64,000 nt of DNA. Source: Onchidella celtica. Taxonomy: Eukaryota > Mollusca > Gastropoda > Systellommatophora > Onchidiidae. Below, in pieces: positions 489 through 62,348 of the stretch; the first letter of the stretch is position 1, and each line of letters opens with the position of its first letter. The notes below the pieces were generated by a model that had not been told where the DNA came from, ran no database searches, and saw nothing but the letters and a program-made list of their open reading frames with translations. The stretch is from contig OZ007582.1 of NCBI GenBank assembly GCA_963931925.1, positions 31,218,230 to 31,282,229 of the forward strand, written 5' to 3'. The position numbers and the translations under genes are program-made.

Positions 489-998
489 GTGAACCAGACG
501 AAATCTGACTTACAAAATCTCCCTCTAGAAATGAACCAGATTGAGGCTGACTTAGAAAATCGCCGTGTAGCAATGAATCAGGTCAAAGCTGACTTAGTAA
601 TACACCCTGTTCGGATGATACAGGCCATAACTGACTTACAAAATCATGCTGCAAAGGCCAAGCAGATCAAAGCTAGATTAGAAAATCGCGGTGTACAGAT
701 GAATCAGACCAAAGCTGCCTTAGAAAATCACCCTGTTGGGGCGAACAAGACAAAAGCTGGCTTAAAATATCTCCCTGTAAAGATGAACCTTACCCTAGCT
801 AGATGTAGAAAAGAAACTCGCCGCGTAAAGCTGAATCAGATCAAAGCTAGATTAGAAAATCGCCGTACACAGGTTGATCAAACCAAAGCTGATTTAGAAA
901 ATCGCAATTTATAGATGGGTCGGGCCATAGCTGACTTACAAAACTGCCATGCAAGAGTCAGGCAGATCCAAGCTGAGTTGTACAAAAGTACGCTCGCC
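489..998 (+). repeat. 42-bp coding repeat: expanded coiled coil of FREP-A
   Basis: About twelve tandem 42-bp units in frame 3, each encoding 14 residues, that is two heptads, of the type MNQTKADLENRRV plus one. The pattern keeps N-Q-T/I-K-A-D/R-L-x-N in most units; one unit (about 783-830) is two codons longer. The intact paralogue has only about two such units. The 14-residue period keeps the hydrophobic positions in register, so the repeat is a coiled-coil stalk between Ig2 and the fibrinogen domain. One copy contains the TAG at 912-914. Confidence 0.85.
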
Positions 999-1762
999 AA
1001 AAGTTGCGATGATCTAACTTTATCTGTAGGTCAACATGAGATCACGCTGGCCCCCGACAATCTTGGACTCGTAAAGGTTTTGTGTGACGTCAAAAGCACA
1101 AATGAAACTTGGACAATTTTCCAGAAAAGATTTGACGGCAGCGTGGATTTGTACCGAGATTTCAGTGAGTACGAAAATGGGTTTGGATCCATTAATGGTG
1201 AGCACTGGCTAGGACTAAAACACATCAAACGTCTCCTGGATGCCAGTGGAAAAAATCATGAGCTCCGTGTGGACATGGTGTTGACCTCGAACGGTACCCG
1301 ATATACCCGTATCTACTCGACGTTTTCTATTGGACCAGGCGATGCCTACACTCTTACAGTAGCAGGTTATGACGACGGAGGTCTTGGCATGTCTTTCAAT
1401 AACGGAGCTGCCTTCTCTACTTACGACCGCGGACCTTATCAATGTATGATCTCCATATCCTCCATTTTTAACTTTCATTATTTACCACTTTGTTGTCGGT
1501 TTTAACTTTTTCTTCTTATGTTGCCTTTACTCCCAAATAGACAACATTGGTCTAACCTCTCTGGGCTCTGCCCCGGTTTTTGCTTGTGATCAAGTTCTGA
1601 TTTCAAAACTGGTTTTTAGGGACATAATTAATGGGTTTTCATGATCATTAGTTGATTTATTGTGTATATCTTAGAAAACACTAAAAAGAACTTATTTTTC
1701 TCGCGCTGAGTTCTTGTGTGATCTGCAGCCGAGTGCTACATGTCGGTGTACCACTGGTGATA

Positions 1763-20500: not shown

Positions 20501-20668
20501 CCAGAAGAAGGTGTAGTTTTCTTCTTTGACTGACCCAGAGTCGGGAAGTCGAGTTTCTTGAAGGGCAGCGATGTCGATGTTTAGTAGCTGAAGTTCTCGA
20601 TCAATAATTTGGGATTTCCTGATGGAGTCAATATTAGTGAGATCTTGCTGTTGCAAGCCTGGGCGCAT
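17536..20668 (-). pseudogene. LINE (APE-type non-LTR retrotransposon) ORF2, one frameshift
   Basis: Encodes endonuclease plus reverse transcriptase for target-primed retrotransposition. In the 926-residue main frame (20668-17888): APE endonuclease 1-245 with QETRLPDSG (E38), YAP (109-111), GDFNAR (144-149) and TDH (239-241); RT about 525-800 with LYKNKGD, NNYRGISLLS, FVDLTKAFD (D615), GVKQGCVLAP and FADD (734-737). The frame breaks at a run of eight T on the plus strand (17928-17935); the C-terminal part continues in another frame to 17536 and ends in a CCHC-like finger (CNHCHRTLGSNIGRISHERS). One base in this homopolymer is the only lesion seen, so it is very young or a sequencing error. No ATG precedes the conserved GTWNVRTM start back to an in-frame stop near 20755. 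Clade not assigned. Confidence 0.9.
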
Positions 20669-35464: not shown

Positions 35465-36544
35465 TCATTTTTTAGTAGGAGCTGTTATTTTTGAAGAAGT
35501 TTGCTTGAAGTTTAAGCAACCAGGAAATAACATTTGAAAGGTCTGTCTGTACTTGGTGCTCATGCGGTAGTAAAGAAAAATATTGACGCTTGAGTTTATG
35601 TTATGAAACATAAATACAAAAGAGCATACAGCCAGAAACCTAGTTCGTCTGGGGCCCAACGGACTGAATAATTCTGGCTCAAAAACCATGACGATAGCAA
35701 AAATCGTCCCTGGGGTATAACAGAATATCATAACAGAAGCTATCAGCACAACCATCTTGACTGTTCTTCGATCACGTTTAGACATCTCATCAGAACGTTG
35801 TGTATCCGATACGGCCTCCTTACGCCATGCAGATTTCTGATTCAGTTTGACCACTAATATTATGGTAAATACAACCACGCAGATGAAAGACACGTAGCCA
35901 ACTAGGGCAGTTAAAACGTAGCCAAAAATATTCTTTCCACTATCCGAACTAGTCTCAATCAGGCGGAGGATTGTTCTGTTTTTAGCAGGATGGAACTTCC
36001 AGCCTAGTTTAAAATTGAAATACGCTGGACAAATGGCCAAAATATTCACTATATATATGGTGCAGATTATAATGGTGGTTCTTCTTGGTGTGATTATCTG
36101 TTTCACTTTTAGGGGAAGGGCAATTCCCAGGCATCTCTCAGCTGTGATGAAGACAGTTATCCAGCCTGTGATTCGCGAGAAACAAACAGAGGGGACCGCC
36201 AGTGATATGTATTGAACTTCAGCCGAATCGAAATGTATATCAGCAGTCTTAAGATAAGGGTTCATGAAGATATTCATCCAAAGCTCCAGTAACAGGGAGG
36301 TCAAATCGGATATTGCCAATCCTAATAAACTAATATTCACACTGTAACTAAAACCTTGCTTTATAAATACGATAATGTTGATCACATTAGTTGCAATGCC
36401 AAAGCAGCATAAAAGAGTACAAATAATGACGTAGTTCACCACCTGAATAATTTCATATTGCCAAACTGAAGCTGCATATCTCTGAGGATTTTCAATAGAA
36501 GTGACATTTTCTTGCGTCAGTGTGCTTTGAGACATGGCGTCCAC
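35465..36544 (-). CDS. Rhodopsin-like GPCR, chemoreceptor-type, intronless
   Basis: A 359-residue single-exon seven-helix receptor in the plasma membrane. Helices, by hydrophobicity: TM1 34-60 (N53), TM2 68-92 (ISD, D80), TM3 115-143 (C121; the DRY position reads E136-R137-C138), TM4 154-176, TM5 207-235, TM6 261-288 (FCYTPG, P278), TM7 301-326 (N321-IFL-Y325 in place of NPxxY). N-glycosylation sites are possible at N13 and N189. The third loop holds a basic stretch (KRDRRTVK) before TM6. The overall style (intronless, ISLLGLAISDL, AERC, ALPLKVK) resembles the expanded gastropod chemosensory receptor families; the ligand is unknown. The start chosen is the first ATG, giving a 30-residue extracellular tail. 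Confidence 0.88.
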   Translation of the reverse strand: MDAMSQSTLTQENVTSIENPQRYAASVWQYEIIQVVNYVIICTLLCCFGIATNVINIIVFIKQGFSYSVNISLLGLAISDLTSLLLELWMNIFMNPYLKTADIHFDSAEVQYISLAVPSVCFSRITGWITVFITAERCLGIALPLKVKQIITPRRTTIIICTIYIVNILAICPAYFNFKLGWKFHPAKNRTILRLIETSSDSGKNIFGYVLTALVGYVSFICVVVFTIILVVKLNQKSAWRKEAVSDTQRSDEMSKRDRRTVKMVVLIASVMIFCYTPGTIFAIVMVFEPELFSPLGPRRTRFLAVCSFVFMFHNINSSVNIFLYYRMSTKYRQTFQMLFPGCLNFKQTSSKITAPTKK

Positions 36545-39097: not shown

Positions 39098-42000
39098 TTG
39101 CGGTCGAAACAAAAAGAAATTCAGCTTACTCAGCTAGGAGCCTGGAATATACGCACACTACAGGACAACTCAAACAACCCGGAAAGACGCACTGCACTTA
39201 TTGCCATTGAGCTCAGCAGGTACAACCTGGACATAGTGGCACTCAGTGAGACCAGACTCCCTGATAGTGGCCAACTCAAAGAGCTCAGTGGTGGATACAC
39301 CTTCTTCTGGAAAGGCAAGGGTGCAGTCGAACCGAGACAGCATGGTGTTGGGTTTGCAATTAAAAATGACCTTGTCAGAAACTTGCAGTCCATGCCAATT
39401 GAAATAAATGACAGGCTAATGACACTCAGGATCCCAGTTGGGAAAAGCCAGTCAGCCACCCTCATTAGCGCATATGCGCCCACCATGACAAACCCAGATG
39501 AAGCCAAAGACAAGTTCTATTCTGATCTAGAATCTGTCATATGCTCTGTCCCGGCAGCTGATAAGCTGATTCTCTTGGGGGACTTCAATGCTGGGGTTGG
39601 CGCCGAAATCTCAGCGTGGCCAAATGTTTTGGGCCCTCATGGAGTTGGTTCATGCAATAACAATGGGTTGCGCTTACTTACTTTGTGCGCTGAATTTGGC
39701 CTGTTCATTACCAACACAAATTTTAGTCTCCCCGTGAGAAACAGAACGTCATGGATGCATCCCCGCTCAAAGCATTGGCATCTCATAGACTATGTCATTG
39801 TGAGGAAGACTGACAGAAAGGATGTCCTTGTAACAAAGGCGATGTGTGGTGCCGAGTGTGGAACTGACCACAGACTCATTGTTTGCAAGCTCAGACTAAC
39901 ATTGAGGCGCAATAGACGCCCTCAAGGGAAAGCGCCACCTAAACGCCTAAATGTTTCAAAACTCTGCTCAGCTGAGAAACAGAGCGAGCTCTCATCAGAA
40001 CTCTCCTCAAAATTGGATTGCGTGACTTTTGACCCTGAGAACATTGAACAGAGCTGGACTGACCTAAATACGACTGTACACTCTTGCGCCAGCAGCACAG
40101 TCGGTTTTCCTGTCCGCAAGCACCAGGACTGGTTCAATGATAATGATAATGAAATCAAAGTGCTCATCAAAGAAAAAAATAGTCTCATCCAAGCTCACTG
40201 CAGTGACCCCTCTTCCACAGCAAAAGCTGATGCACTGCGTGCATGTAAGGGTGTACTCCAGAAGAAGCTGAGGAAAATGAAAAATGACTGGCTTGAAGAG
40301 CGAGTAAGAGAAACTCAGAAATATGCCGACACAAACAACACTAGAAAGTTCTTTGAGAGCCTCCGAGCTGTGTTTGGACCATCCCGATCTGGCACTACGC
40401 CACTTCTTGCGTCAGATGGTTCAACACGCATTGTTGAATTGAATGCCATAATTCAGCGTTGGGTAGAACATTTCGGAGGTGTGCTAAATCGGCCATCAAA
40501 TATAAATACTGAGTCCATTGACCGCCTCCCTCAGACTCCTATTAATGCAGCTCTTGCCAAGCCATTCACAGCAAATGAGACCCGAACTGCCACAAATCAG
40601 ATGTCCTTTAATGGATTCAATTCCTGCTGAGGTGTATGCCTTCGGTGGAGAAAAGCTTATTGAAAGGTTGACCGAGTTGTTCAATCATATGTTGAAAGCA
40701 GGGAAGCTGCCACAGGACTTCAAAGATGCTTCAATCATCCATCTGTACAAAAACAAAGGGGACAGCCAAGTCTGTGACAACCATCGGGGAATCTCTCTAC
40801 TTTCAATTGCTGGCAAAATATTGGCAAGAATGCTTCTGAATCGCCTTCTTGATCACCTCTCGTCAATGACTTGCTTCCCGAGAGCCAATGTGGCTTTCGT
40901 AAAGGGAGGGGAACGGCGGATATGATTTTTGCTGCCAGACAGATTCAGGAAAAATGCATGGAACAAAATAAAGCGCTGTATATCACATTTGTTGACCTCA
41001 CAAAAGCATTTGACACAGTGTGTCGTGAAGGCTTCTGGAAAATCTTGGCGAAGTTTGGGTGTCCACCGGAATTCATCACAATAGTGCGCCAGTTTCATGA
41101 TGGCATGCAAGCTGCAGTCAAAAGCAACGGCAGTGTTTCAGAGCCCTTTGCTGTCACAAATGGGGTAAAACAGGCTTGTGTCATAGCCCCAACTCTGTTC
41201 AGCATCATGTTCTCTGCAATGCTACAAGAAGCCTTTAGCTCTCCTCATCAAGGGGTAAGCATCAAGTACCGAACTGATGGCAGTCTATTCAACCTCAGGA
41301 GACTTCAGGCAAAAACCAAAACCAAAAGTAATCAAGTCTGTGACCTACTATTTGCTGATGATTGTGCACTTCTGGCACACGATGAGGATAGCATGCAAAA
41401 CTGTGTTGATAAGTTCTCTAGTGCCTGTGACAACTTTGGCCTCACAATAAGCACAAAGAAGACGGAAGTGCTCCATCAGTCTACTCCAGACGACAAGTAT
41501 CCTGTGACCCCAAATATCAAAGTCCATGACAGTCTTCTGAAGGTGTCGGAGAACTTCACCTATCTTGGCAGTACACTGTCTTCCGCGGCTCGTGTTGATA
41601 CTGAAATTCTCTCAAGAATCAGCAAAGCCAGCTCTGCATTTGGCAGGCTTCGAAAGAGAGTATGGGATGTTGCCGGCATTCGCACAGACACTAAGCTGAA
41701 AGCGTACAATGCTGTGGTCCTTCCCACCCTACTCTATGGGGCTGAAACCTGGACAGTGTACCAATCGCATGCCAGAAAGCTAAATCACTTTCATCTGGCC
41801 TGCCTTAGAAAGATCCTAAGGATCAAATGGCAGGATAAAATTCCAGACACTGAGGTCCTCAATCGTGCCAAGGAATTGAGCATCTTCTGCCACCTGAAAA
41901 AAATTCAGCTACGTTGGGCAGGACATGTTGTCAGAATGTCCGACTCCAGACTCCCTAAGCAAATCTTCTTCTCTGAGCTCTCCAATGGAACGAGGAATGT

Positions 42001-42295
42001 TGGGGCCCCAAAGAGACGTTACAAAGACACTCTCAAGCAATCACTGAAGGCCTTTGCCATTGATGTGAGTGAGTGGGAAAAGCTCTCGCTTGGTCGTGCA
42101 AATTGGAGGGCGGCCCTTACCAGAGGCAGCAAAGCATGGGAAGCTGACAGAGTCCAGCAGGCTATCAAAAAAAGAGAACGGCGCAAGAAAAGGCCCAGTG
42201 GTACTGAACCAACGGAGCACTCTTGTCATTTATGCGGAAGGGTCTGCAGGGCAAAAATAGGACTTATCAGTCACATGAGAAGCCATAAGTCATGA
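39098..42295 (+). pseudogene. LINE (APE-type non-LTR retrotransposon) ORF2, two frameshifts
   Basis: Same type as the minus-strand LINE but a distinct family. Segment 1 (39098-40630) has the APE endonuclease: GAWNIRT, SETRLPDSG, YAPTM, GDFNAG, TDHRLI. Segment 2 (about 40605-40870, a different frame) has LYKNKGD and NHRGISLLS of the RT. Segment 3 (40871-42295) has SQCGFRKGRG, VDLTKAFD, GVKQACVIAP, FADD and a C-terminal CCHH-type finger (CHLCGRVC...HMRSH). Breaks lie at about 40605, where several codons also seem to be missing between the two frames, and about 40868. No ATG is seen before GAWNIRT; the frame opens from a TTG. Inactive as shown. Confidence 0.9.
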
Positions 42296-43090: not shown

Positions 43091-44504
43091 TGTCAGGGTT
43101 TAAGTAATATAAATGCCGTGCTGGGTCACGACTTGTAAGGAGTTGATTTTTCACGGTCTCGTTGATTATAACCAGCGTAATTTTGTCCTTGAACTGTTCT
43201 CGTGAACAGTTTGTTTTTGAAACACTTTTTCGTAGAGATGGAAAGAAAGTGGGGCGAGATAGAATAAATGGATAAGTTAGGAGTGACAGTGCAATTCTCG
43301 ACCCCGTGATTTTGATGAACACTTAGAAGGGAAGAGAAGGGGTGAATAAGGATAGATAGTTTAAGACGCTTAGTCGCGTTCAGAAATTCGTACATAAAAT
43401 GTAGAAAGCACGAGGGTTTAAAGATTTCAGTAATTGTTTTGACATTTTAATTTGACCTTGTCTGTTTTTAGTACAAGGCCGTGACCAACTCCCACGTAGA
43501 ATATATTAATACTGCGAGATGAGCTCGCATGGATGCACCAATCAAATCTAGGGATTTGGACGGTAATTTGCAGGTGGCTGCACAGTATAAAAGCGTAGCC
43601 ATACCTATGTCCATTACTCCATACAGAAAATTCCAATCTGTGCAGGCGTCGGCACGATTCTGCCTGAAGAATCATAAGACTGTTGATTCATGTCTAGTCC
43701 ACTATAGACATTGAGATGAAGCCATATGCTTGAATGAGATATGCCCACTGCTATTGTCTACTGTTCCCTGGTTTTTCTAATACCAGGGACCAAGTGTAAG
43801 TGTTTGTCCTTTGATGATTCAGCAATGAACGAGGAACTGAACATAATTTATCCAGTAGGACAGGATTGCCGCATATGCTAGGAGTGCTACCCAAGAATGC
43901 AAGACAAAGATTTATATTGACTTGCCACTAGTATGAATGTTTGGCATACACATCTGTGAATTGGGATTGATTTGTCTGGATGAGGCTGGGGATTGCCAGC
44001 CCATCCTAGAGTAGATCCAATAGACTTAACTACGTCAGTTTATATTGACGAGCTTGATCCATTATAAGCGGTAGGCACAAATAGCTGAGAGGACATCGTC
44101 GCCAGAGACATTAGTATATTGCTTGATAGATAGTAGGCAGACTATATCTGAGAGATATATAACTAGTACTTAAATTGTTAGTGAGTCAGAATGATCATAA
44201 CCTTATAGGAATCTAGAGAAGACTTCTAGTGACATATTATTGAATTTTCATTTGACGCTGCTGATGTTGTCTTTTAGTATGTAATAGATCTAGACAAAAT
44301 TGTTAGGAAATTTAATGTAATTAAATTTGTGGGCCTGCAGGTCTGTTTATGAAACTTATTCAGATTGTTCTTAGTGTGTGGCATGGTACGAAAGAGTAAA
44401 TAGTAAATACCTCTCGATTTAAAATGCAGTCATAATTCCATCATTGAGAAGACCCTCTTCATAACAGCTAGAGGGCACTACCACCCAGTACCAGAACTGT
44501 AACA
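43091..44504 (+). repeat. 5' LTR (1414 bp)
   Basis: TG...CA ends. TATAAAAG at 43586-43593 is the likely promoter TATA. Compared with the 3' LTR it differs at about 43743 (C/T), 44255 (C/T) and 44391 (G/A). Confidence 0.95.
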
Positions 44505-44505
44505 C

Positions 44506-44523
44506 TGGAGAGGGACCCCCTAA
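44506..44523 (+). promoter_or_regulatory. Candidate primer binding site
   Basis: TGGAGAGGGACCCCC starts one base after the 5' LTR. TGG complements the CCA end of a tRNA, as expected of a primer site, but I cannot match the rest to a particular tRNA. Confidence 0.4.
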
Positions 44524-45324
44524 AGAACTTAAAGAACGCCATGCCATTTAGATAAATTATTCTTAAAACCTATTGACAGACTTACCCTTAGATCCATCTA
44601 TTGCATTTTATTCCATTATTTCATATTGTACTGTTATAACATTGGGATTTCAGGTCCTTTTTACTTTAGGTTATAGTTAATTTGTATTAATATGACATTT
44701 TCTTTCAATTTCATATAACGAGCTGATCATCCCATTGACCCGACGACACCGGCGAGGGACACCATTCACCTTAGATATCTACCTCTAACAGAAACACGAC
44801 ACTTTTTTTTGGACTTGGAACGAGCTATGGATTGAGGACATCACCATCTGAATTCCTCAAAAAAAAGTTAAGTGAACCATCTGATTGTCAGTTTTGAGGA
44901 GGGCGAGGTGCTTTCCGCTCTCAGTATTTACAGGCTTTTTTTCCTTTACTATATGTTTAGTTTAAGAGCGGGAGGTTGGTTGGGATCATAGTATAGCATT
45001 TCTTCTTTGCCATTACGAAGGATATTGGAGTGCCTTGGTGGCTATTGATAACTCGGGGGGATTTGCTTCACTGTGAATAGTTCTATTAGGGATCCATTAT
45101 TCGTATAGATTGTGACGTTTCTCTTGCTTCCTCACATTTCTTTAGGAAGATGTCTCTCCTGTCTTTTTCTTAAACTTTCTGTAATATAAGTTAGGACTTG
45201 TAGGGTCTGTTATCGTTCGTCTTTCTTGTGAGTCTAGCGTCTTGTTTAGTGTATTTTTTTTTCCTTCCTTATAAACTTTAAACTAGTATATTGACATTTC
45301 TATGTTTACAATATATGCCTGAGG

Positions 45325-45870
45325 TGTTTCACGTGCTAAAACCACGTTGAATTGTAATCTGGTATTGATATGTGAGAGAGAGAGATAATAAATTTTTGGT
45401 CACGTGCTAATTTCACGTCGAATATAGAGAGAATAATTTTGCAGTGGTAACAGAGGACACTGCGTGTTCGCGTTTTGAGAGTTTTTGCAGTGGTAACAGA
45501 GGACACTGCGTGTGCGCGTTTTGAGAAGAGAGAGATATTCCAAATTTGTCGCGTTGAGAGAGAGATATATTTTCGATTCGTCGCGTTGAGAGAGCGATAC
45601 ATTTTTGACAGTGATAACAGAGGACACTGGTTCGTCGCGTTGAGAGAGACATAAATTTTGAGAGTGATCACTCAAGACACTGATTTGTCGCATTGAAGGC
45701 GATACATATATATTTTATTGCAGTGGAATAGACGGCACTGCCTTACTAGTATTCATATTCAGAGAGAGAGAGATAAAAATTTTTGCAGTGCAAGTGACAC
45801 TGCCTGCAATTTACAGAGAGAGATAGAACGTTCTTTTCGCGAAGCAGTGGTAACATAGGACACTGGATTA
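45325..45870 (+). repeat. Hairpin-module array in the element's leader
   Basis: At least six CAGTG...CACTG inverted pairs: 45441-45463, 45487-45509, 45609-45629, 45720-45741, 45785-45803 and 45844-45866, mostly 5-6 bp stems with 7-12 nt loops; a self-complementary GAGTGATCACTC is at 45662-45673. Between them recur CGCGTTGAGAGAGA-like spacers. CACGTGCTAA occurs twice at the start (45329, 45401). Located between 5' LTR and gag, where packaging or translation signals normally lie. Confidence 0.75.
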
Positions 45871-46021
45871 ATGTTGAGAGAGAGTAACTGTTAGAGATAA
45901 TATAATTGATACCGCGGTATACCGTAACAGTAGGTAAATACTTACTAATTGTGCACACACTAGCGTGCCAGTGTTTTGATTCTATACGAATCAATACGAG
46001 TAACAGATTTTAATACACATT

Positions 46022-47033
46022 ATGGCCGATTTTCTCAAATACATTGAATCTGCCAAGGCCCTGGGTATACCAGAAGAAGAACGCGCCTCGTGGTGCGAAC
46101 GACAAATACAGCAGGACCGAGACCGGGAGGATCGGTTAGCAGAAAGAGAGAGAGAAAAGGAACAAAGAGAAAGAGAAAAAGAGGCTGTGGAGAGGAAAAA
46201 AAGGGAGCATGAACTCGCATTAAAGAAATTAGAGCTGGAGTCCTTTGTGACCCCCACTTCGTCATTTCTTACACCGCGGGATTTTCCGCATCGGAGTGAT
46301 TTATCCCCGCGTCAAGGATACCACAGACATTCTTTTTACGAGCCTCGCCCGTATTATCGTGGCAACTATCCAAGCCATCAACATAACCGGCTTCAGAGAC
46401 CGCCCCGGCGAGTGTATTTTAGTAATAATAATGATTATGATAGACCGCAAGGTCGGCCTTATCGTGGACACGACTCACACCGTATTATGTGCTTCAGGTG
46501 TAATCAGTTCGGCCACATACAAAGATTTTGTACCGTTAAAATGGGAGCGGCAAAGGCCTGCTCTGTACAATCTACACCCTATACAGATGTTGGTTATACT
46601 AATAAATCTTCATCGCAATCAAAAGCTATTCCAGTCATGTCGGCCCTACATGAACTGGGTGAATTAACATTTTACCAGGGCCGCGTGAACGCGATTCGCG
46701 CTTCCGTTCTACGTGACTCCGGATGCACGACTATCGGCGTTCGACAGTCACTAGTCCGTCCAACACAATTTTTTGGATAGGGATGTAACTTGTATTACTT
46801 TTGGCGGATCTGTAGAGCGATTCCGTCTTGCAGAAGTTTATATTGATACACCTTTTCTCACAGGTATTGTTACCGCATGTGTACTGCCTAATCCGGTGGC
46901 TGATTTAATCATAGGGAATGTACCTCAAGTAATAAAGTTTCCTATCGGTAACTTGGAAATTTGGTCTGAGGATGAGAGTGTTGCTTGTGCGACAACACGC
47001 CTACAATCGAGTCGACGAGCAGACAGTGCATTG
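46022..47033 (+). pseudogene. gag-protease part of the LTR retrotransposon, frameshifted
   Basis: Starts MADFLKYIESAKALGI. Residues about 27-75 are a highly charged Glu/Arg coiled coil, then an Arg/Tyr-rich basic stretch and a CCHC zinc knuckle (C157, C160, H165, C170; CX2CX4HX4C), then a retropepsin domain with active-site DSG (232-234). The frame shifts inside the protease at six T (46769-46774) and continues to the nested LTR with a DLIIGN motif near the protease C-terminus. No capsid-like domain is visible between the coil and the knuckle, where a few hundred residues are usual. Gag forms the particle and the protease cuts the polyprotein. Confidence 0.8.
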
Positions 47034-48305
47034 TGTCAGGGTTAGAATTTGAATTGCCGTGCTGGGTCACGGGTTTGTTTATTTCATGTCATCATTGATT
47101 TTAGCCAGTGCAAACGTCCTTGAACTATTCCCGTGGACAGTTTGTTTTTGAAACGCTTTTTCGTAGAGATGGAAAGAAAGTGGGGCAAGATAGAACGAAT
47201 GGATAAATTAACAGTGACGGTGCAGTTTTCAACCCCGTGGTTTGGGTGTACTTTAACAGGGAAAGACGGGGCGAATAAGGAGTGAATAAATTCGTACATA
47301 AAACGTATAGGGTGTAGAGACTTTGCGAAAGCTTTTGACATCCTAAGTTTGACTTTGGCTGTTACTATTAATAGACTGCGAGCTGAGCTCGAAGTGGATG
47401 CACCAATCAAAATTGAGCAGTTCGCTGGGATTTGCAGAAGATAAGCGGAGACATCTTTATGCTAGTTCACTTCCATGTAGATCCTTCCATCTGCGAGGGC
47501 GGTCGGCTAAGGTTCAGCCAGAGAGAACCATAAGACTGTTAAATGCATGTCTATGTCCTGGATAGACAATGAAATAATCCACAGCTATTTTCTCCAGTTC
47601 CCTGAAATCGTTTCAGGGAACCAATCGTAAGTGTCTTCACAATGATTCGAGATGATGTGAATCTGACCCTAATTTTCCAGTAGAAGTGCTACCAAAGGAA
47701 TGCAAGACCATAATATTTTACTTGCAATTAAGATCTAGAATGAGTGACTGGTATACACATTTGTAAATTGTAATTGATGTGTCTGGATGAGGCTGGGGAT
47801 TGCCAGCCCATCCTAGAGCAGATCTAGATCTATCTTAACTACGTCAGTGTGTCTTGACGGTTTGATCCTTTATAAGTAATTAACTGAGTTAACATTGTCG
47901 TCTGAGACATAAGAATATTATTTGTGAGATAGTAGGCAGACTATATTTCTGAAGATAAATAATTACTAAGTAAACTGTGAATGAGTCAGAATGATATGGA
48001 TTTTCTAATCTTTAAGATCCTAGAGGAGACTTCTAGTTATGTATTATACTAGTTTCATTTGATGCTGCTGATGTTGTCTTTTTGATATGTAAGATAGACG
48101 AAATTGTTAGGAATTTTAAGTAATAAATTTGTGGCCCTACAAGGTCCTTGATATAACGTACTCGAAATTGTTATTAGTGTATGTGGCATGGTATGGCAGA
48201 GTAATTAGTAAAACCTCTCGATATTTATTAAAAATGCAGTCGAACACGTAAATTTATAATTAACCATCCTCGTAAAACACGAGCACAGTAATCCCCATCG
48301 TAACA
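47034..48305 (+). mobile_element. Nested solo LTR of a related subfamily, CATTG duplication
   Basis: 1272 bp, begins TGTCAGG, ends GTAACA, flanked by CATTG at 47029-47033 and 48306-48310. It aligns along its length with the 1414-bp LTR (GCCGTGCTGGGTCACG, TTTTTCGTAGAGATGGAAAG, GGCTGGGGATTGCCAGCCCA) but is clearly diverged and lacks the TATAAAAG region. It separates protease from integrase; the reading frames on the two sides are in register, so the insertion is a later event. Confidence 0.92.
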
Positions 48306-48307
48306 CA

Positions 48308-51094
48308 TTGAGCAACCCTACTATTGAATTGAACATAACGTCTAGTGCATTCCATGATGAGCAACAGTCAGACCCCACATTGAAACATTTGTTTACTAAA
48401 GTTGATCCTACAGCGCCGGATACCTCTAAGTTTCTTATTAAAGATGACTTATTATATCGTAATTTTCGAAATAAGCGAGAGACCGTTATGCAGCTTGTAG
48501 TACCAAGATCTTTTCGTCGCGACATTATTCGTCTCGCGCATGACACTTCCTTGGCGGGTCACCAAGGAAAGGCCAGAACTAAGTCTCGAATACTATCGCA
48601 ATTTTTTTGGCCCAGTATTTACGCAGATGTAAACCGGTTCGTATCAACATGTGACGTATGTCAGAGACGTACTCCTAAAGGGAGAGCATCGCGGGCTCCT
48701 CTGCAGGAGATGCCAATGGTATCCAGACCATTTGAGCGCGTTGCCGTAGATATAGTTGGCCCTCCACACAAGTCAGACAGAGGACATCGCTATATACTTT
48801 CTGTCATTGACTACGCAACACGTTGGCCAGAGGCCATTCCACTAAAAGACATTTCAGCCGATCATGTGGCTGAAGCCCTTATTACTGTTTTTTCGCGTCT
48901 TGGATTTCCGGTTGAAATTTTATCGGACAGAGGTCCACAGTTTACCTCTGAACTTTTTAAGAAAGTCTTGGAATTGGTAGGGATTAAACAAAGATTGACA
49001 TCTCCATACCACCCACAGTCTAATGGCTGCTGTGAACGATGGAATGCTACCATGAAAGCTATGCTTGCGCGGGTTTCGGCCGACAAGCCGTGTGATTGGG
49101 ATCGACAGCTCCCCGCTATTCTCTTTGCATACCGAGAACTACCGAACGCATCGACGGGTTTTTCCCCCTTCGAATTATTGTATGGTCGCAAGCCGCGTGG
49201 TCCAATGGCCATACTCCGTGATTTATTCGCCGGATCAGACACCGACGACAACGATACGCGGTCTGCATATCAATACGTTGTAGACTTGCGACATAGAATT
49301 CTTAATGCATGTCAGCTCGCACAAAAATCTTCGACTGCGCATGCGAGTCTTTATAAACTATATCGTGATCAGGGTAGCCGATTGCGAACCTTGGCCGTCG
49401 GAGACCAAACTCTTGTTCTCCTTCCGGAGACGAAAAATAAACTCCTTCTTACATGGAAGGGGCCTTTTAAAGTCCTAAAGAGACTTTCTCGAGTAAATTA
49501 TCTTATCAAGATTCGGGGACAGGACAAAGTGTTCCATATAAATATGTTAAAGCAGTACCTGTCCGACGATGATAATCGTCAGAATAATCGCCGAAATGTG
49601 GTTGCTCAGGCCAATGCGGCCTTAGTTTCAGTTGACGATGATGATCCTATTAAGATAGAGCATTCAATCCCCGCACTGCAATCTTCTGAAAATACTTCGG
49701 ATGTACATATAAATCCAGATCTGTCTGAATCGCAAAGACAAGATATAAGAGATTTGCTTAACGAGTTTACTACGGTCTTTACTGATCTACCAGGTAATAC
49801 CTCATTGGTACAGCATGTTATAAGATTAAAGACGGATATACCCGTCTTTGTTAAACCATACCCGCGTCCGCTGCACGCACAGGAGACTATAATAACCGAG
49901 GTACGTAACATGTTTCACCTGGGAGTGATAGAGCGATCGACGAGCCCATATAACTCACCCATCGTCTTAGTGAAAAAAAAAGATGATACAGTGCGTTTTT
50001 GTATTGACTATCGTAAACTTAATGAGGTTACGATATATGACGCTGAACCGATTCCCAACCAGGAGAATCTTTTTGCGCAGTTAGCGAGGGCAACGATTTT
50101 TTCTAAAATTGATCTTTCCAAAGGCTATTGGCAAATTCCGCTTGATGAGAATAGCAAGCAATATACCGCTTTTCAGACCCCGTTGGGTCTTATGCAGTGG
50201 CGCTATATGCCTTTTGGATTAGTTACAGCCCCTGCCACTTTCGCGCGTATGATGACAATATTGCTCCAGAATATGAATTCCGTGTTGTCGTATTTTGACG
50301 ACATTTGTATTTATCAAACCGATTGGTCGGGCCACCTCGCAGCCCTACGTCAAGTTTTTATTGCTCTTCATCGAGCTGGCCTTACGGCGAAACCCAGTAA
50401 AGTGTTTTTAGGATACAATGAAATTAATTTTCTGGGCCATACAATTGCCCACGGCGTTCAGACCCCTGATGACAAGAAGATAACTACCATCTTAAAGCTC
50501 CAAGCCCCTCGAACTAAGAAAGAAGTTCGTAGTTTATTGGGCTTTCTTAATTATTATAGGAAGTTCATTCCAAATTTTTCTTCGCTTACAGCTCCGTTGT
50601 CGGACCTCACAAGAAAGAATTTTCCTAATAAAGTGAAATGGACAACCGAATGTACTGATACACTTCGTACCATTCAACGATTGTTTTCGACTTCCCCCAT
50701 TCTCATACTGCCAGATATAAACCAAATATTTATTGTCCGCACTGATGCGTCGGACAAGGGATTAGGAGCTGTGTTGTTGCAGGAACGAGACGATACCTTG
50801 CGGCCGTGTCTATACGCCAGCCGCAAGTTGCTAGATAGGGAATGCCGCTATGCAATTATCGAGCGAGAGTGCCTCGCTATCATTTTTGCTGTAAACGCAT
50901 TTTCGCGATATTTACTCATGTCAGAGTTTATAATTGAAACGGACCATCGTCCGTTGTTATTCTTGAAGTCTAACAGGGCTAAAAATGCTCGATTAACGAG
51001 GTGGAGTCTTGCACTCCAGGAATACCGGTTTGTTATCCGGGCTATCCCTGGCGGTGACAATTCCCAAGCTGATGTTTTGTCACGTCTAATTTAG
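48308..51094 (+). pseudogene. pol: integrase - reverse transcriptase - RNase H (in this order)
   Basis: A 928-codon uninterrupted frame. Integrase comes first: HHCC zinc site H78, H85, C115, C118; catalytic D148, D207, E243 (D,D35E); GPF module with WKGPFKVLKR (383-392) and VFHINMLKQY (408-417). The RT follows: FCIDYRKLNEVT (564-575), SKIDLSKGYWQIPL (D602), YMPFGLVTAPATF, and the active site YFDD (662-665). RNase H: D813 (TDASDKGLGAVL), E852/E854 (ERECLAI), D879 (TDHRPL), D922 (ADVLSR). All expected catalytic residues are present. It is cut from its gag-protease start by the nested solo LTR and begins without an ATG, so it is classed as broken although its own frame is intact. Confidence 0.92.
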
Positions 51095-51758
51095 TTTCCT
51101 ATTAAAGAGTGTTGTGTCTTGTATTGGGGTTGGATAGTACTTTTCCCCCTCAATTCTGGACAGTGGATGGATTCACATTATCTTGTTCACTACTTTATGA
51201 ACCAGTTTTACAATCCTTTTTTGTGAATATCCTCTTTCCACCAGCGTCATTCCGGACTGTGACCTGAACTTCTGACAAACCTGACGCCCTTGTCAGCGGG
51301 TCAATGAGATGGAGACATGGCAAACCAAGCTACCAGAGCTACTGCTGCCATTGGATACCACAGTATTTTAATTAACAATATATTGTTTGTGAATGTGTAT
51401 ATAAGCAGCAATTATGTGTGTTGACTAGATAATTATGAGCCTATTCCTTCAGTAAGGCCTGATTGTTTGATAGTAGTTATACTTTAATTCAGCAGTATAC
51501 AGTGATATACTCATTGTTATTATAAATGTTCGTGAGAAGTTTGATTGTGTGCAGTGAGAATGTTTCGATAGACTAGATTCTACAGAACGTGGCATCAATA
51601 ATTGTATGCTTTTTGTCCATCCAATATGCACGTTCTTAGTTAGATTTTTTGTTCTCAAGCTTAAGGCTGACTTTTCTACAGTAGTACTTGGGCCCCCACC
51701 ACAATAACTTTGTGGTTTCTTCGATCCTATCGTGTAAATTTTTCTTAAAATTTCCACT

Positions 51759-51769
51759 GGGGTGGGGGA
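51759..51769 (+). promoter_or_regulatory. Polypurine tract
   Basis: GGGGTGGGGGA directly before the 3' LTR, the usual plus-strand primer position. The 660 bases between the pol stop and this tract contain no gene. Confidence 0.75.
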
Positions 51770-53183
51770 TGTCAGGGTTTAAGTAATATAAATGCCGTGC
51801 TGGGTCACGACTTGTAAGGAGTTGATTTTTCACGGTCTCGTTGATTATAACCAGCGTAATTTTGTCCTTGAACTGTTCTCGTGAACAGTTTGTTTTTGAA
51901 ACACTTTTTCGTAGAGATGGAAAGAAAGTGGGGCGAGATAGAATAAATGGATAAGTTAGGAGTGACAGTGCAATTCTCGACCCCGTGATTTTGATGAACA
52001 CTTAGAAGGGAAGAGAAGGGGTGAATAAGGATAGATAGTTTAAGACGCTTAGTCGCGTTCAGAAATTCGTACATAAAATGTAGAAAGCACGAGGGTTTAA
52101 AGATTTCAGTAATTGTTTTGACATTTTAATTTGACCTTGTCTGTTTTTAGTACAAGGCCGTGACCAACTCCCACGTAGAATATATTAATACTGCGAGATG
52201 AGCTCGCATGGATGCACCAATCAAATCTAGGGATTTGGACGGTAATTTGCAGGTGGCTGCACAGTATAAAAGCGTAGCCATACCTATGTCCATTACTCCA
52301 TACAGAAAATTCCAATCTGTGCAGGCGTCGGCACGATTCTGCCTGAAGAATCATAAGACTGTTGATTCATGTCTAGTCCACTATAGACATTGAGATGAAG
52401 CCATATGCTTGAATGAGATATGCTCACTGCTATTGTCTACTGTTCCCTGGTTTTTCTAATACCAGGGACCAAGTGTAAGTGTTTGTCCTTTGATGATTCA
52501 GCAATGAACGAGGAACTGAACATAATTTATCCAGTAGGACAGGATTGCCGCATATGCTAGGAGTGCTACCCAAGAATGCAAGACAAAGATTTATATTGAC
52601 TTGCCACTAGTATGAATGTTTGGCATACACATCTGTGAATTGGGATTGATTTGTCTGGATGAGGCTGGGGATTGCCAGCCCATCCTAGAGTAGATCCAAT
52701 AGACTTAACTACGTCAGTTTATATTGACGAGCTTGATCCATTATAAGCGGTAGGCACAAATAGCTGAGAGGACATCGTCGCCAGAGACATTAGTATATTG
52801 CTTGATAGATAGTAGGCAGACTATATCTGAGAGATATATAACTAGTACTTAAATTGTTAGTGAGTCAGAATGATCATAACCTTATAGGAATCTAGAGAAG
52901 ACTTCTAGTGACATATTATTGAATTTTCATTTGATGCTGCTGATGTTGTCTTTTAGTATGTAATAGATCTAGACAAAATTGTTAGGAAATTTAATGTAAT
53001 TAAATTTGTGGGCCTGCAGGTCTGTTTATGAAACTTATTCAGATTGTTCTTAGTGTGTGGCATGGTACAAAAGAGTAAATAGTAAATACCTCTCGATTTA
53101 AAATGCAGTCATAATTCCATCATTGAGAAGACCCTCTTCATAACAGCTAGAGGGCACTACCACCCAGTACCAGAACTGTAACA
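51770..53183 (+). repeat. 3' LTR (1414 bp)
   Basis: Same length and ends as the 5' LTR, three differences seen by eye, all transitions. TATAAAAG at about 52265. Confidence 0.95.
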
Positions 53184-54944: not shown

Positions 54945-56530
54945 GGTGCTGCCAGTAGAGATGTTTCCTCTAAAGGCTCTGCTTAATGACTTTCCTCATC
55001 AGTCCCGACTTGTCTCCATGTATTGTATCGAGATTCAGTATTGGAACCATATGGGTGATGTGCTGTAGCCTAACATTTCCAGCCGTTCTCAATCGATATC
55101 AGGCGCCACATAGAGGTAGAGAATGGACATTATCTTCTATAACTGGCGATTATCTCACAATTTAAATTTCTGTTTGGTCGCCTCGCTTACTACTGTTTGA
55201 TGGCCTCACTTACTACTGTTTGATGGCCTCACTTACTACTGTTTGATGGCCTCACTTACTACTGTTTGATGGCCTCACTTACTACTGTTTGATGGCCTCA
55301 TTTACTACTGTTTGATGGCCTCACTTACTACTGTTTGATGGCCTCACTTACTACTGTTTGATGGCCTCACTTACTACTGTTTGATGGCCTCACTTACTAC
55401 TGCTTGATGTTTGATCTAGATCTAAATCTGTATTTTTCTATTAGTAACTTAATTCTGAATACAACAATATGGGAAACATTAATAGTGTATATTTGTTTAC
55501 GTCAAAAAATCAGTCAGTTTTGCTACCTGGCATTACTATGACACGAAGTAACGTAACATCAGTGTATTATTAGATCTAGATCTAATCGATCCACAACTTA
55601 CAAAACCGGCGTGTACTCGAAGCTTGTCATCTCACACCAAAATTAGAATTTCCATCAACCTCTTTTGACTGTTGTCACATTTTCTTCAAATTCTCATTCA
55701 AAATGGAAAAGCATTTATAAAATGAAAAAGTGGGACAAAACGTATAAATCAACTCACAGTTGGTCATCTCGCTTATCTAGTTCTATATAAATCTAGAATA
55801 TATAGATATCTGGGGTTGTTTTTTTTTTTTGTTTGTTTAGGAATTCCACGTCAGAGACTTAAACAGTCTATTCGTCTACTTTCAGCTGGTTTCTTTTTTT
55901 ATACCTACGGCAGTATAATCTGGCTTTCTCAGCTTTCACCTCTTGTTCTCTGACAATTTCAGTGTTCAGTTCATATACCACTGATCCTCCTGCTCCTCGT
56001 AACTTGTAGGTCTAGACCTAGAACTGCAACTTAAATCATTACGCCTTCCACATGTCCCCACATTGGACCATTCCTTGCTTCCCAGGGCCTTCCTCCTCTT
56101 CACTGTCAGTACTCAGAAACTCAGTGTCAAAGAAAAGCTATTCTACAGGCTTTCTTCTTCTGTTGTTGTTTTTTATTTCCTCCACAGCAGGTAACATTTT
56201 TTCACACTGTATTTACGCTGAGATATTGTGTTGCTTGGCTGCCACTTTTCATAAACACTGAGTCTGTGACCTAGCTTCCGTAAACAGCCAATAAGAAAGC
56301 AGCATGCTTAAGGACTTACAGTATTAATAGGCAAAAAGAGAACAGCAGGCATAGGGGCTTCGGTATGTAGCAAAGAGATATCATAGTTACTGAGAGACTT
56401 TCCCGGTAGCTAAGCATGATTTGAACTGTTTACATTATTTAATAATATTTCCGGGGCCACTCTGGTTCGGTTAGGCATGATGTAAGCCGTTCAAAGATGA
56501 TCTTAAACTGTTGCTGATATTATTCCTTAC
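54945..56530 (+). repeat. Interspersed paralogous segment, copy 2
   Basis: Homologous to 33140-34430 throughout, but with the TTACTACTGTTTGATGGCCT unit amplified at 55177-55406. No coding potential seen. Confidence 0.7.
55177..55406 (+). repeat. 23-bp tandem repeat, about 10 units
   Basis: Near-identical 23-bp units (TGGCCTCACTTACTACTGTT plus three bases). The homologous segment at 33376-33400 has one unit only. Confidence 0.95.
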
Positions 56531-56630: not shown

Positions 56631-58691
56631 AACTTCCTGACATCTTCTAGAACCCCCGGCCACACCGAGTTCCTGACATCTTCTAGAACCCCCGGCCACA
56701 CCGAGTTCCTGACATCTTCTAGAACCCCCCGCCACAACGAGTTCCTGACATCATCTAGAACCCCCGGCCACACCGAGTTCCTGACATCTTCTAGAACCCC
56801 CGGCCACACCGAGTTCCTGACATCTTCTAGAACCCCCGGCCACACCGAGTTCCTGACATCTTCTAGAACCGGCGGCCACACCGAGTTCCTGACATCTTCT
56901 AGAACCCCCGGCCACACCGAGTTCCTGACATCTTCTAGAACCCCCGGCCACACCGAGTTCCTGACATCTTCTAGAACCCCCGGCCACACCGAGTTCATGA
57001 CATCTTCTAGAACCCCCGGCCACACTGAGTTCCTGACATCTTCTAGAACCCCCGGCCACACTGAGTTCCTGACATCTTCTAGAACCCCCGGCCACACTGA
57101 GTTCATGACATCTTCTAGAACCCCCGGCCACACTGAGTTCATGACATCTTCTAGAACCCCCGGCCACACTGAGTTCATGACATCTTCTAGAACCCCCGGC
57201 CACACCGAGTTCATGACATCTTCTAGAACCCCCGGCCACACTGAGTTCATGACATCTTCTAGAACCCCCGGCCACACTGAGTTCATGACATCTTCTAGAA
57301 CCCCCGGCCACACTGAGTTCATGACATCTTCTAGAACCCCCGGCCACACTGAGTTCATGACATCTTCTAGAACCCCCGGCCACACTGAGTTCCTGACATC
57401 TTCTAGAACCCCCGGCCACACCGAGTTCCTGACATCTTCTAGAACCCCCGGCCACACTGAGTTCATGACATCTTCTAGAACCCCCGGCCACACCGAGTTC
57501 ATGACATCTTCTAGAACCCCCGGCCACACTGAGTTCATGACATCTTCTAGAACCCCCGGCCACACTGAGTTCATGACATCTTCTAGAACCCCCGGCCACA
57601 CTGAGTTCATGACATCTTCTAGAACCCCCGGCCACACTGAGTTCATGACATCTTCTAGAACCCCCGGCCACACTGAGTTCATGACATCTTCTAGAACCCC
57701 CGGCCACACTGAGTTCATGACATCTTCTAGAACCCCCGGCCACACCGAGTTCCTGACATCTTCTAGAACCCCCGGCCACACTGAGTTCATGACATCTTCT
57801 AGAACCCCCGGCCACACTGAGTTCATGACATCTTCTAGAACCCCCGGCCACACTGAGTTCATGGCATCTTCTAGAACCCCCGGCCACACCGAGTTCCTGA
57901 CATCTTCTAGAACCCCCGGCCACACTGAGTTCATGACATCTTCTAGAACCCCCGGCCACACCGAGTTCCTGACATCTTCTAGAACCCCCGGCCACACCGA
58001 GTTCATGACATCTTCTAGAACCCCCGGCCACACCGAGTTCCTGACATCTTCTAGAACCCCCGGCCACACCGAGTTCATGACATCTTCTAGAACCCCCGGC
58101 CACACCGAGTTCCTGACATCTTCTAGAACCCCCGGCCACACCGAGTTCATGACATCTTCTAGAACCCCCGGCCACACTGAGTTCATGACATCTTCTAGAA
58201 CCCCCGGCCACACCGAGTTCCTGACATCTTCTAGAACCCCCGGCCACACCGAGTTCATGACATCTTCTAGAACCCCCGGCCACACCGAGTTCCTGACATC
58301 TTCTAGAACCCCCGGCCACACCGAGTTCATGACATCTTCTAGAAACCCCGGCCACACCGAGTTCATGACATCTTCTAGAACCCCCGGCCACACCGAGTTC
58401 ATGACATCTTCTAGAACCCCCGGCCACACCGAGTTCATGACATCTTCTAGAACCCCCGGCCACACCGAGTTCATGACATCTTCTAGAACCCCCGGCCACA
58501 CCGAGTTCATGACATCTTCTAGAACCCCCGGCCACACCGAGTTCATGACATCTTCTAGAACCCCCGGCCACACCGAGTTCATGACATCTTCTAGAACCCC
58601 CGGCCACACTGAGTTCATGACATCTTCTAGAACCCCCGGCCACACCGAGTTCATGACATCTTCTAGAACCCCCGGCCACACCGAGTTCATG
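56631..58691 (+). repeat. 36-bp minisatellite, about 57 units
   Basis: Uninterrupted 36-bp units containing GACATCTTCTAGAACCCCCG and GGCCACAC; nearly every unit has a TCTAGA. Variants are mainly TTCATG/TTCCTG and CACACC/CACACT, with rarer changes at the left edge (56725-56875). Because 36 is divisible by three and the unit has no stop in several frames, long frames run through on both strands (12-residue units MTSSRTPGHTEF on plus and MNSVWPGVLEDV on minus). These are best explained by composition, not selection: the common variants include amino-acid changes in both frames. Confidence 0.95.
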
Positions 58692-60944: not shown

Positions 60945-62348
60945 TGTTACGGGTCTGGTACTGGGGTGATAGTGTTACAGAGTGGGTGTTATGAGTTATT
61001 GGTTTTATGACTGCATTTTAAAATCGAGGGGTATTTATGAATTACTCTTTCGTACCATGCCACACACTAAGAACAACCTGAATAAGTTTTTATCAACAGA
61101 CCTGCAGGGCCACAAATTTAATTACCTTAAAATTCCTAACAATTTTGTCTAGATCTCTTACATACTAAAAAGACAACATCAGCAGCATCAAATGAAAATT
61201 CAATAATATGTCACTAGAAGTCTCCTCTAGATTCCTATAAGATTAAGATCATTCTGACTCACTCACAATTTAAGTATTACTTATCTATCTCTCAGATATA
61301 GTCTGCCTACTATCTATCAAGCAATATAATCATGTCTCTGGCGACAATGTCATCTCAGCTATTTGTGCCTACCGCTTATAATGGATCAAACTCGTCAATA
61401 CAAGCTGACGTAGTTAAGTTAGATCTACTCTAGGATGGGCTGGCAATCCCCAGCCTCATCCAGACAAATCAATTCCAATTCACAGATGTGTATGCCAAAC
61501 ATTCATACTAGATCTAGTTGCAAGTTAATATACATCTTTGTCTTGCATTCTTGGGTAGCACTCCTAGCATATGCGGCAATCCTGTCCTACTGGATAAATT
61601 ATGGTCAGCTCCTCGTTCATTGTTGAATCAACAGACAAACACTTACACTTGGTCCCTGGTAAGGAACCAGGGAGCAGCAGACAACAGCAGTGGGTAAATC
61701 ATAATCGAGCATATGGCTTCATCTCAATGCCTATAATGGACATAGACATAAAAAACAACAGTCTTCTGATTCTTCTGGCAGAATCACGCCGACGCCTGCA
61801 CAGATGGAATTTTCTGTATGGAGTAATGAACATAGGTATGGCTACGCTTTTATACTGTGCAGCCACCTGCAAATTACCGTCCAAATGCCTAGATTTGATT
61901 GGTGCATCCATGCGAGCTCAGCTCGCAGTATTAATAGATTCTACGTGGGAGTTGGTCACGGCCTTGTACTAAAAACAGACAAGGTCAATTTAAAATGTCA
62001 AAACAAGTACTGAAATCTTTAAACCCTCGTGCTTTCTACCTTTTATGTACGAATTTCTGAACGCGACTAAGCGTCTTAAACTATCTATCCTTATTCACCC
62101 CTTCTCTTCCCTTGTAAGTGTTCATCAAAATCACGGGGTCGAGAATTGCACTGTCACTCCTAACTTATCCATTTATTCTATCTTGCCCCACTTTCTTTCC
62201 ATCTCTAAGAAAAAATGTTTCAAAAACAAACTGTTCACGAGAACAGTTCAAGGACAATTTACGCTGGTCATAATCAACGAGACCGTGAAAAAAACAAGTC
62301 TTTTCAAGTCGTGACCCAGCACGACAATTATAACATTAACTCTTGACA
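60945..62348 (-). mobile_element. Solo LTR of the 43-53 kb family, GTGAG duplication
   Basis: 1404 bp, the reverse complement of the 1414-bp LTR at high similarity, including TATAAAAG (complement at about 61848-61855) and GGCTGGGGATTGCCAGCCCA. Flanked by GTGAG at 60940-60944 and 62349-62353. No internal region remains, so it arose by LTR-LTR recombination. Confidence 0.93.

What the first reader, a model, noticed from the sequence alone, without database searches (positions are those of the whole stretch)
46022..51094. Gypsy-type retrotransposon with integrase upstream of reverse transcriptase (Gmr1-like order) in a mollusc
Seen: in one 928-codon frame the integrase (HHCC, D148/D207/E243, GPF module) precedes the RT (YFDD) and RNase H, and the protease lies before the integrase. 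Known: Ty3/gypsy elements normally run PR-RT-RH-INT; PR-INT-RT-RH is typical of Ty1/copia, and the Gmr1 group, first described from cod and other deuterostomes, combines gypsy-like enzymes with the copia-like order. Inferred: this is a Gmr1-type lineage in a gastropod, or an independent rearrangement. I cannot check whether mollusc members are already catalogued.
Basis: partly seen in the sequence, partly recalled or inferred. Interest (0 to 1): 0.85.

Follow-up and report, generated by a model that had tools for sequence, protein, structure and literature searches.

The report
Snail retrotransposon with swapped enzyme order
This stretch of a snail-like genome holds a recently inserted jumping gene (an LTR retrotransposon) whose integrase sits before its reverse transcriptase; related families in that genome share the unusual order, and this copy belongs to a subfamily that has lost its capsid domain yet spread.

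Summary
In detail: the frame at 48308-51094 encodes integrase, then reverse transcriptase, then RNase H, inside a 10.1-kb LTR element (43091-53183). It is not a local rearrangement: 20 of 20 other copies read share the order, and four INT-first families were found in this genome beside two standard-order ones. RT and INT trees both separate INT-first from INT-last rows (95.5/86 and 99.5/100). Capsids of the two INT-first families tested match the SCAN domain, which the literature derives from Gmr1-like capsid; one match is only just over the cut-off, and three INT-last Gags show none. I read it as a Gmr1-type lineage in a gastropod, though no Gmr1 reference was in the trees.

That subfamily carries 5-bp duplications in 5 of 6 readable copies, young LTRs and a pol with a synonymous excess. 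It probably borrows capsid in trans, as barley BARE2 does.

Known kind, new variant and host group.

The parts
43091..44504 (+). 5' LTR, 1414 bp, TGTCA...GTAACA
   Evidence: Direct repeat of 51770-53183; 3 transitions in 1414 positions
44505..44525 (+). putative primer binding site; the tRNA was not identified
   Evidence: Directly after the 5' LTR; the first 13 letters stand after the 5' LTR in 13 of the 20 fetched copies as printed
44505..46021 (+). 5' leader with imperfect tandem repeats at 45437-45707
   Evidence: matched wholly or in part in 20 of 20 copies
46022..46780 (+). gag ORF: charged coiled-coil-like N part, basic part, CCHC knuckle, first half of protease; no capsid domain
   Evidence: only weak zinc-knuckle and DUF matches; compare CA-bearing copies
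46258..46259 (+). junction of the capsid deletion shared by the CA-less subfamily
   Evidence: same junction in 8 of 8 other CA-less copies read, with single-base differences beside it in two; 161-bp junction query matched at 40 scored places, window included, 39 end to end and one from base 5
46641..47033 (+). protease region (DSG motif), read in two frames, broken at about 46775
   Evidence: ORFs 46022-46780 and 46773-47045; protease-like match in L039; no Pfam match in the window pieces
47034..48305 (+). solo LTR of a related subfamily between protease and integrase; 5-bp duplication CATTG at 47029-47033 and 48306-48310
   Evidence: 85% identity without gaps to the outer LTRs (69% in a gapped blastn alignment); absent at this site in 20 of 20 other copies
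48311..49600 (+). integrase: H2C2 finger, D148/D207/E243 core, GPF-type C-terminal module
49601..50401 (+). reverse transcriptase (YFDD)
50402..51094 (+). RNase H, ending at the stop codon with no integrase after it
51095..51769 (+). 3' untranslated part ending in putative polypurine tract GGGGTGGGGGA (51759-51769)
51770..53183 (+). 3' LTR, 1414 bp; no target-site duplication with the 5' flank (CGGGA / ATAGG)
60945..62348 (-). second solo LTR of the same family, 5-bp duplication CTCAC

Best explanation
The feature is one copy of a Gmr1-type Ty3/gypsy LTR retrotransposon with pol order PR-INT-RT-RH. Shown: gypsy-type enzymes in INT-first order, LTRs, 5-bp target-site duplications in 13 of 16 readable copies, the same order in 20 of 20 other copies, and an INT-first group that separates from INT-last rows in both trees. 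Inferred from general knowledge of LTR elements: LTR transcription, a Gag-Pol polyprotein cut by its protease, reverse transcription inside a Gag particle, integration by its own integrase. The window copy belongs to a subfamily that lost the capsid part of Gag in one in-frame deletion and went on spreading. The likeliest route is that its RNA and Pol are packaged in capsids made by CA-bearing siblings with near-identical LTRs (inferred; the barley BARE2/BARE1 arrangement). The window copy itself is now broken: protease frame broken, solo LTR between protease and integrase.
For: Domains and order. Copies: 20 of 20 in the order gag-PR-INT-RT-RH, with PR abutting INT to within 3 bases. Other families: L036, L038, L039, L040 and L061 INT-first; L037 and L062 INT-last; in 7 of 7 stray gypsy contigs INT follows RNase H. 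Trees: INT-first against INT-last split RT 95.5/86, INT 99.5/100 (SH-aLRT/ultrafast bootstrap). SCAN match in 2 of 2 INT-first families tested (27.6 and 31.3 bits, cut-off 27), none in 3 INT-last Gags. Capsid-less subfamily: 8 of 20 copies plus the window; 40 scored places matching across the junction, window included; same junction sequence. Insertion marks: exact 5-bp duplication in 13 of 16 copies with both LTRs readable, 5 of 6 for CA-less ones; CA-less LTR divergence 0.07-0.50% in those six. Uninterrupted frame from gag ATG to RNase H stop in 4 of 8 fetched CA-less copies. Pol constraint in 14 CA-less copies chosen by the junction, plus the window: 33 synonymous of 70 singleton changes against 28.5% expected (transition weight 4 assumed), p = 0.0007. 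Mixing: CA-bearing L018 and L029 nest among CA-less copies in both pol trees; L018, L020 and L029 carry window-like LTRs.
Against: No Gmr1 reference was in the trees. The INT-last side holds only two families of this genome, fungal Ty3 and three stray contigs of unknown host; other gypsy families in the hit lists were not read. RT support for the split is moderate and was lower with fewer rows (81.6/72); the order inside the INT-first group is weak in the INT tree (87.7/70, 84.1/67). The SCAN match of the window's siblings fell just under the cut-off when the whole Gag was given (26.3 against 27) and just over it for the capsid piece (27.6); L004 as a control gave no capsid family at all. Shared CA-less changes are few (8 synonymous of 17, p = 0.08) and show weaker constraint than CA-bearing shared changes from a differently chosen sample (28 of 36; Fisher p = 0.03). 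The 20 long copies came from the top of an INT-similarity list, so 8 of 20 is no genome-wide rate. One CA-less copy with an incomplete LTR pair, L032, shows 0.94% over the part compared. Trans-packaging is not shown by experiment. The window copy lacks a target-site duplication.
Confidence: 0.85

Rival explanations
1. An INT-first order that arose independently in a lophotrochozoan gypsy lineage and is not related by descent to the Gmr1 group of deuterostomes.
For: No Gmr1 sequence could be compared. The 2018 mollusc survey lists no Gmr1 among the known gypsy clades it retrieved (section 6 read). The annelid paper that reports a Gmr1-clade family gives Gag-PR-RT-RH-INT for all 178 of its Gypsy elements in its Table 1, and a later annelid study did not find that clade (passage). 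Size and LTR length here (8.4-9.5 kb in the 15 other copies with both LTRs read, LTRs mostly 1.2-1.44 kb) exceed fish Gmr (6.1-6.5 kb, LTRs 337-518 bp; table passage).
Against: SCAN-type capsid in the two INT-first families tested and in none of three INT-last Gags. A fused gag-pol frame of about 1500 aa in 4 of 12 fetched CA-bearing copies resembles fish Gmr (1506-1634 aa). Gmr1-clade elements were reported in crustaceans and an annelid (passages), so protostome members are expected.
Confidence: 0.12
2. A one-off rearrangement or assembly error in this copy.
For: The window copy has no target-site duplication and an internal solo LTR.
Against: 20 of 20 other copies, on 14 different contigs, have the same order, and three other families do too.
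Confidence: 0.01
3. The capsid-less copies are deletion products copied passively, with no role for their own Pol.
For: Weaker constraint on shared changes in CA-less pol than in CA-bearing pol, though from differently chosen samples (Fisher p = 0.03); of 20 junction-chosen loci, 4 had no RT-RH match at the expected place and 2 only part of it.
Against: Open gag-to-RH frame in 4 of 8 fetched copies; synonymous excess among singleton changes (33 of 70, p = 0.0007); at least 40 places.
Confidence: 0.3

Closest known systems
Gmr1 clade of Ty3/gypsy (cod and other deuterostomes; later reported in crustaceans, an annelid, frogs, fishes)
   Same: gypsy-type RT, RNase H and INT; INT upstream of RT; SCAN-related capsid in CA-bearing siblings; single gag-pol frame in some copies
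   Different: gastropod host; longer LTRs and leader; some copies have a stop codon between gag and PR; a capsid-less subfamily
BARE2/BARE1 of barley (copia-like; PMC3735527 abstract and passages)
   Same: a subfamily that cannot make its own capsid protein but keeps pol and spreads, beside a capsid-making sibling
   Different: gypsy, animal host; here the capsid domain is deleted in frame while the N-terminal part and zinc knuckle remain; packaging in trans is inferred, not shown
Mollusc MolGy clades (Thomas-Bulle et al. 2018, PMC6238403)
   Same: mollusc gypsy elements, one of which may be this lineage
   Different: that survey classed by RT/RNase H; in the passages and section 6 I read it reports no INT-first mollusc element, and Gmr1 occurs once in its main text, in the background; its supplements were not readable here

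Membership tests
Gmr1 clade | Ty3/gypsy-type RT, RNase H and integrase | tested here: met
Gmr1 clade | integrase between protease and reverse transcriptase | tested here: met
   window and 20 of 20 copies
Gmr1 clade | order inherited by a lineage, not by one copy | tested here: met
   four INT-first families; concordant RT and INT splits
Gmr1 clade | capsid homologous to the SCAN domain | tested here: met
   Capsid piece of siblings L019 and L020: 27.6 bits, cut-off 27, but 26.3 when the whole Gag was given; L063, upstream part of the L038 copy: 31.3 bits. The window copy itself lacks the capsid.
Gmr1 clade | groups with Gmr1 itself in RT and INT trees | not testable with these tools
Ty1/copia | copia-type RT and integrase | tested here: not met
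   best matches are Ty3-type for both halves
BARE2-like capsid-deficient subfamily | no own capsid, pol retained, copies spread | tested here: met
BARE2-like capsid-deficient subfamily | RNA packaged in the sibling's particles | not testable with these tools
   needs particle and RNA work

The most novel reading that the evidence does not exclude
A two-component retrotransposon community in an animal: CA-bearing copies, some with a stop codon at the gag/PR border that would favour free Gag, act as capsid suppliers, while capsid-less copies, none of the eight fetched with that stop, make a shorter fused Gag-Pol and supply Pol. Selection would then act on pol in copies that cannot make a particle, with frequent recombination between the two.
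Probability: 0.15. Interest if true: 0.75.

Novelty: new variant of a known kind. Interest (0 to 1): 0.5.

Why it matters
It extends the rare INT-first gypsy order, with a SCAN-type capsid, to a gastropod, with four families in one genome, so the order looks old and stable rather than a vertebrate oddity. The capsid-less subfamily gives a natural animal case for asking whether pol can be selected in elements that must borrow a particle.

Tried and rejected
Viral-contig scans with RT, INT and two RT alignments found no relative. The one genome-contig scan gave seven stray gypsy contigs, kept as INT-last controls. L003, L005, L006 and L007 were left out of the trees (a stop in frame in L003; partial or broken matches in the others). 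L039 and L040 were left out of the INT tree because their integrase is incomplete. Family search PF17921 rang in 0 of 14 control genomes, so it gave no references. The capsid had no convincing solved-structure match (best E 0.088). Automatic LTR boundaries were wrong for several copies and were redone from PBS and PPT anchors; 5 of 21 copies had no readable LTR pair (L016, L019, L034 without anchor, L030 and L032 incomplete) and were dropped from the duplication count. A literature search for capsid-deleted non-autonomous elements with five terms found 0 papers. No structure prediction was run. Considered and rejected: copia element; misassembly or one rearranged copy; solo LTR as an old part of the element (absent in 20 of 20).
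Full report
What is there. The 928-codon frame at 48308-51094 encodes integrase, reverse transcriptase and RNase H in that order. Both halves match Ty3-type chains best among solved structures (INT 9.4e-30; RT-RH 9.9e-68), so this is a gypsy element in INT-first order, not copia. The element is bounded by two 1414-bp LTRs (43091-44504, 51770-53183) that differ at 3 positions, all transitions, with a purine tract before the 3' LTR and a putative primer site after the 5' LTR. At 0.21% divergence it inserted recently; with an assumed (recalled, not measured) neutral rate of 1-4e-9 per site per year that is roughly 0.3-1 million years.

Between protease and integrase lies a 1272-bp solo LTR (47034-48305), 85% identical without gaps to the outer LTRs (69% in a gapped alignment), flanked by the 5-bp duplication CATTG; protease and integrase frames on its two sides are in register if the LTR and one duplication are left out of account. 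It is absent at that site in 20 of 20 other copies. A second solo LTR of the family lies at 62348-60945 on the minus strand with duplication CTCAC. The protease frame is broken near 46775; the protease is assigned by motif and by similarity to L039, since Pfam gave no match in the window pieces. The outer LTRs have no target-site duplication (CGGGA / ATAGG); recombination between copies would explain that, but I did not test it.

Other copies. The window lies in a 1.14-Gb genome of 43 contigs. An integrase query scored 120 places, all at 97-100% identity, out of 15062 first-look candidates. I fetched 20 of those places, near the top of the list, 10 on each strand. All 20 read gag-PR-INT-RT-RH with protease abutting integrase to within 3 bases; L019 has no recognisable 5' LTR and L034 no 3' LTR in the fetched stretch. 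Of 16 copies (window included) with both LTRs readable, 13 have an exact 5-bp duplication; the misses are the window, L022 (4 of 5 bases) and L024 (a tandem copy). LTR divergence in the 16 is 0-0.50%. The family is therefore a working or recently working lineage in this order.

A lineage, not a rearrangement. Other gypsy families of the same genome were sampled with RT queries; only some of the hit families were read. L036, the L038/L039/L040 group and L061 are INT-first; L037 and L062 are RT-RH-INT. In seven of seven stray gypsy contigs from bacterial or archaeal MAGs integrase follows RNase H; L006 and L007 hold a further RT downstream. Trees of 12 RT and 10 INT rows both separate all INT-first from all INT-last rows (RT 95.5/86, INT 99.5/100, SH-aLRT/ultrafast bootstrap). 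Both give the same order within the INT-first group: L036, then L061, then the window with L038; that order is well supported for RT and weakly for INT. A first round with fewer rows gave weaker support for the split in RT (81.6/72) and 97.4/99 in INT.

Gmr1 or not. Literature seen as passages: the Gmr1 group combines gypsy enzymes with INT upstream of RT (PMC6238403, PMC8220671). Protostome members were reported in crustaceans (PMC3587641) and an annelid (PMC8220671), but the annelid paper's Table 1 gives Gag-PR-RT-RH-INT for its 178 Gypsy elements, and a later annelid study did not find that clade (PMC8556966). The SCAN domain of vertebrate proteins is described as derived from Gmr1-like capsid (PMC4592553, PMC3424704). 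The capsid pieces of the window's siblings L019 and L020 match SCAN at 27.6 bits (cut-off 27), alongside Retrotrans_gag above its cut-off; given as whole Gags they reached 26.3. The Gag of L063, the upstream part of the L038 copy, matches SCAN at 31.3 bits. Gags of INT-last L037 (5' end missing), L001 and L004 do not match SCAN; L004 matched no family at all, so it is a weak control. Four of 12 fetched CA-bearing copies have one uninterrupted gag-pol frame of 1498-1514 aa from the ATG; fish Gmr elements have 1506-1634 aa (PMC11117352 table passage). No Gmr1 reference was at hand, so the final tree was not built. The 2018 mollusc survey retrieved 21 gypsy clades, classed by RT/RNase H, and does not list Gmr1 among them (section 6). 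Three searches (Gmr1 with mollusc, Gmr1 with gastropod, and integrase, 'upstream of the reverse', gypsy and mollusc) listed no paper that I recognised as reporting a mollusc member. That holds only for this library and these terms.

The capsid-less subfamily. Twelve of the 20 fetched copies carry a capsid domain; the other 8 and the window lack it, all nine with the same junction, with single-base differences beside it in two. A 161-bp junction query matched at 40 scored places, window included, 39 end to end and one from base 5, out of 930 first-look candidates. CA-less copies have target duplications in 5 of 6 readable cases and LTR divergences of 0.07-0.50% in those six; L032, with an incomplete pair, shows 0.94% over the part compared. 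They are integrated insertions, not relics. Four of 8 fetched CA-less copies have an open frame from the gag ATG to the RNase H stop (L028, L030, L031, L032; 1257-1316 aa). For a view of pol not chosen by pol I took 20 CA-less loci by the junction: 4 had no RT-RH match, 2 were partial (296 and 1064 of 1491 bases), 14 were usable, one of them with a stop. With the window, singleton changes are 33 synonymous, 36 nonsynonymous and 1 stop, against 28.5% synonymous expected with a transition weight of 4 (p = 0.0007). Shared changes are 8 and 9 (p = 0.08). In the integrase-chosen set, CA-bearing shared changes in RT-RH are 28 synonymous and 8 nonsynonymous, and CA-bearing singletons 36 and 30. So CA-less pol shows constraint, but apparently less than CA-bearing pol on shared changes (Fisher p = 0.03; the two samples were chosen differently). 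CA-bearing L018 and L029 fall among CA-less copies in the INT and RT-RH trees while their nucleocapsid part is of the CA-bearing type (84% to the window): the two classes recombine, as expected if they share particles.

Expression. In five of 12 CA-bearing copies (L017, L018, L019, L020, L029) a stop codon stands at the gag/protease border. In L018, L019 and L020 it lies in frame between gag and the open pol frame; L017 and L029 have other frame breaks. It is absent in the other seven and in 8 of 8 CA-less copies. Of the 120 places, 21 have an open frame of exactly 1066 aa, the length of pol after that stop in L019 and L020. This suggests two ways of balancing Gag and Pol within one family; readthrough is inferred.

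Mechanism proposed. The family works as an ordinary LTR retrotransposon with a polyprotein in which integrase is released from between protease and reverse transcriptase. The CA-less subfamily cannot make a particle of its own, so it most likely uses capsid from CA-bearing siblings with near-identical LTRs and leader. Barley BARE2, which cannot synthesise Gag and is packaged in BARE1 particles, is the closest precedent (PMC3735527 abstract and passages). Shown steps are anatomy, copies, junction, duplications, constraint and recombination; packaging in trans and polyprotein processing are inferred.

Host. Window genes with a fibrinogen domain, one with a weak Ig V-set match, fit snail FREPs (passages of PMC8861042 and PMC10075465). 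All hits fell on contigs C1-C18, of which 17 lengths were printed (37.8-118.6 Mb); with the FREPs this suggests a heterobranch gastropod (recalled chromosome numbers). The species is not established.

Verdict. Real, and a lineage trait: a Gmr1-type INT-first gypsy group in a gastropod, with a spreading capsid-less subfamily. Known kind, new host group and new variant.

Noticed in passing
G000:C13:23550540-23599188 and others: Tandem arrays of the element with exact spacing: 7 copies at 8108 bp; also C14:13160351 (4 at 8105), C7:59369283 (4 at 7890), C1:118319426 (4 at 7877), C3:66068128 (3 at 6407). Real arrays or assembly effects, not tested.
   Followed up: no
(L036 family): The L036-type integrase was scored at 113 places, while its RT-RH at 77% identity or more was found at 22; many integrase copies may lie without that RT nearby.
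   Followed up: no
L032 and L034 3' ends: L032 has a second, divergent LTR joined to its 3' LTR, the best match (88%) to the solo LTR in the window; L034 has a stray protease-integrase piece after its 3' untranslated part.
   Followed up: no
window 56634-58691: 36-bp minisatellite, about 57 copies, open in several frames on both strands.
   Followed up: no
window 55170-55409: 23-bp tandem repeat, about 10 copies.
   Followed up: no
window 17888-20668 (-) and 39098-42295 (+): Two non-LTR retrotransposons with endonuclease and RT domains; the second is split into two ORFs.
   Followed up: partly
window 13-1505 and 25242-26594: Two FREP-like genes with fibrinogen domains, the first spread over three ORFs.
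   Followed up: partly
window 35465-36544 (-): Single-ORF 7TM receptor (Srw and 7tm_1 matches).
   Followed up: no
window 45437-45707: Imperfect repeats in the element's 5' leader (GCAGTGGTAACAGAGGACACTG motif); role unknown.
   Followed up: no
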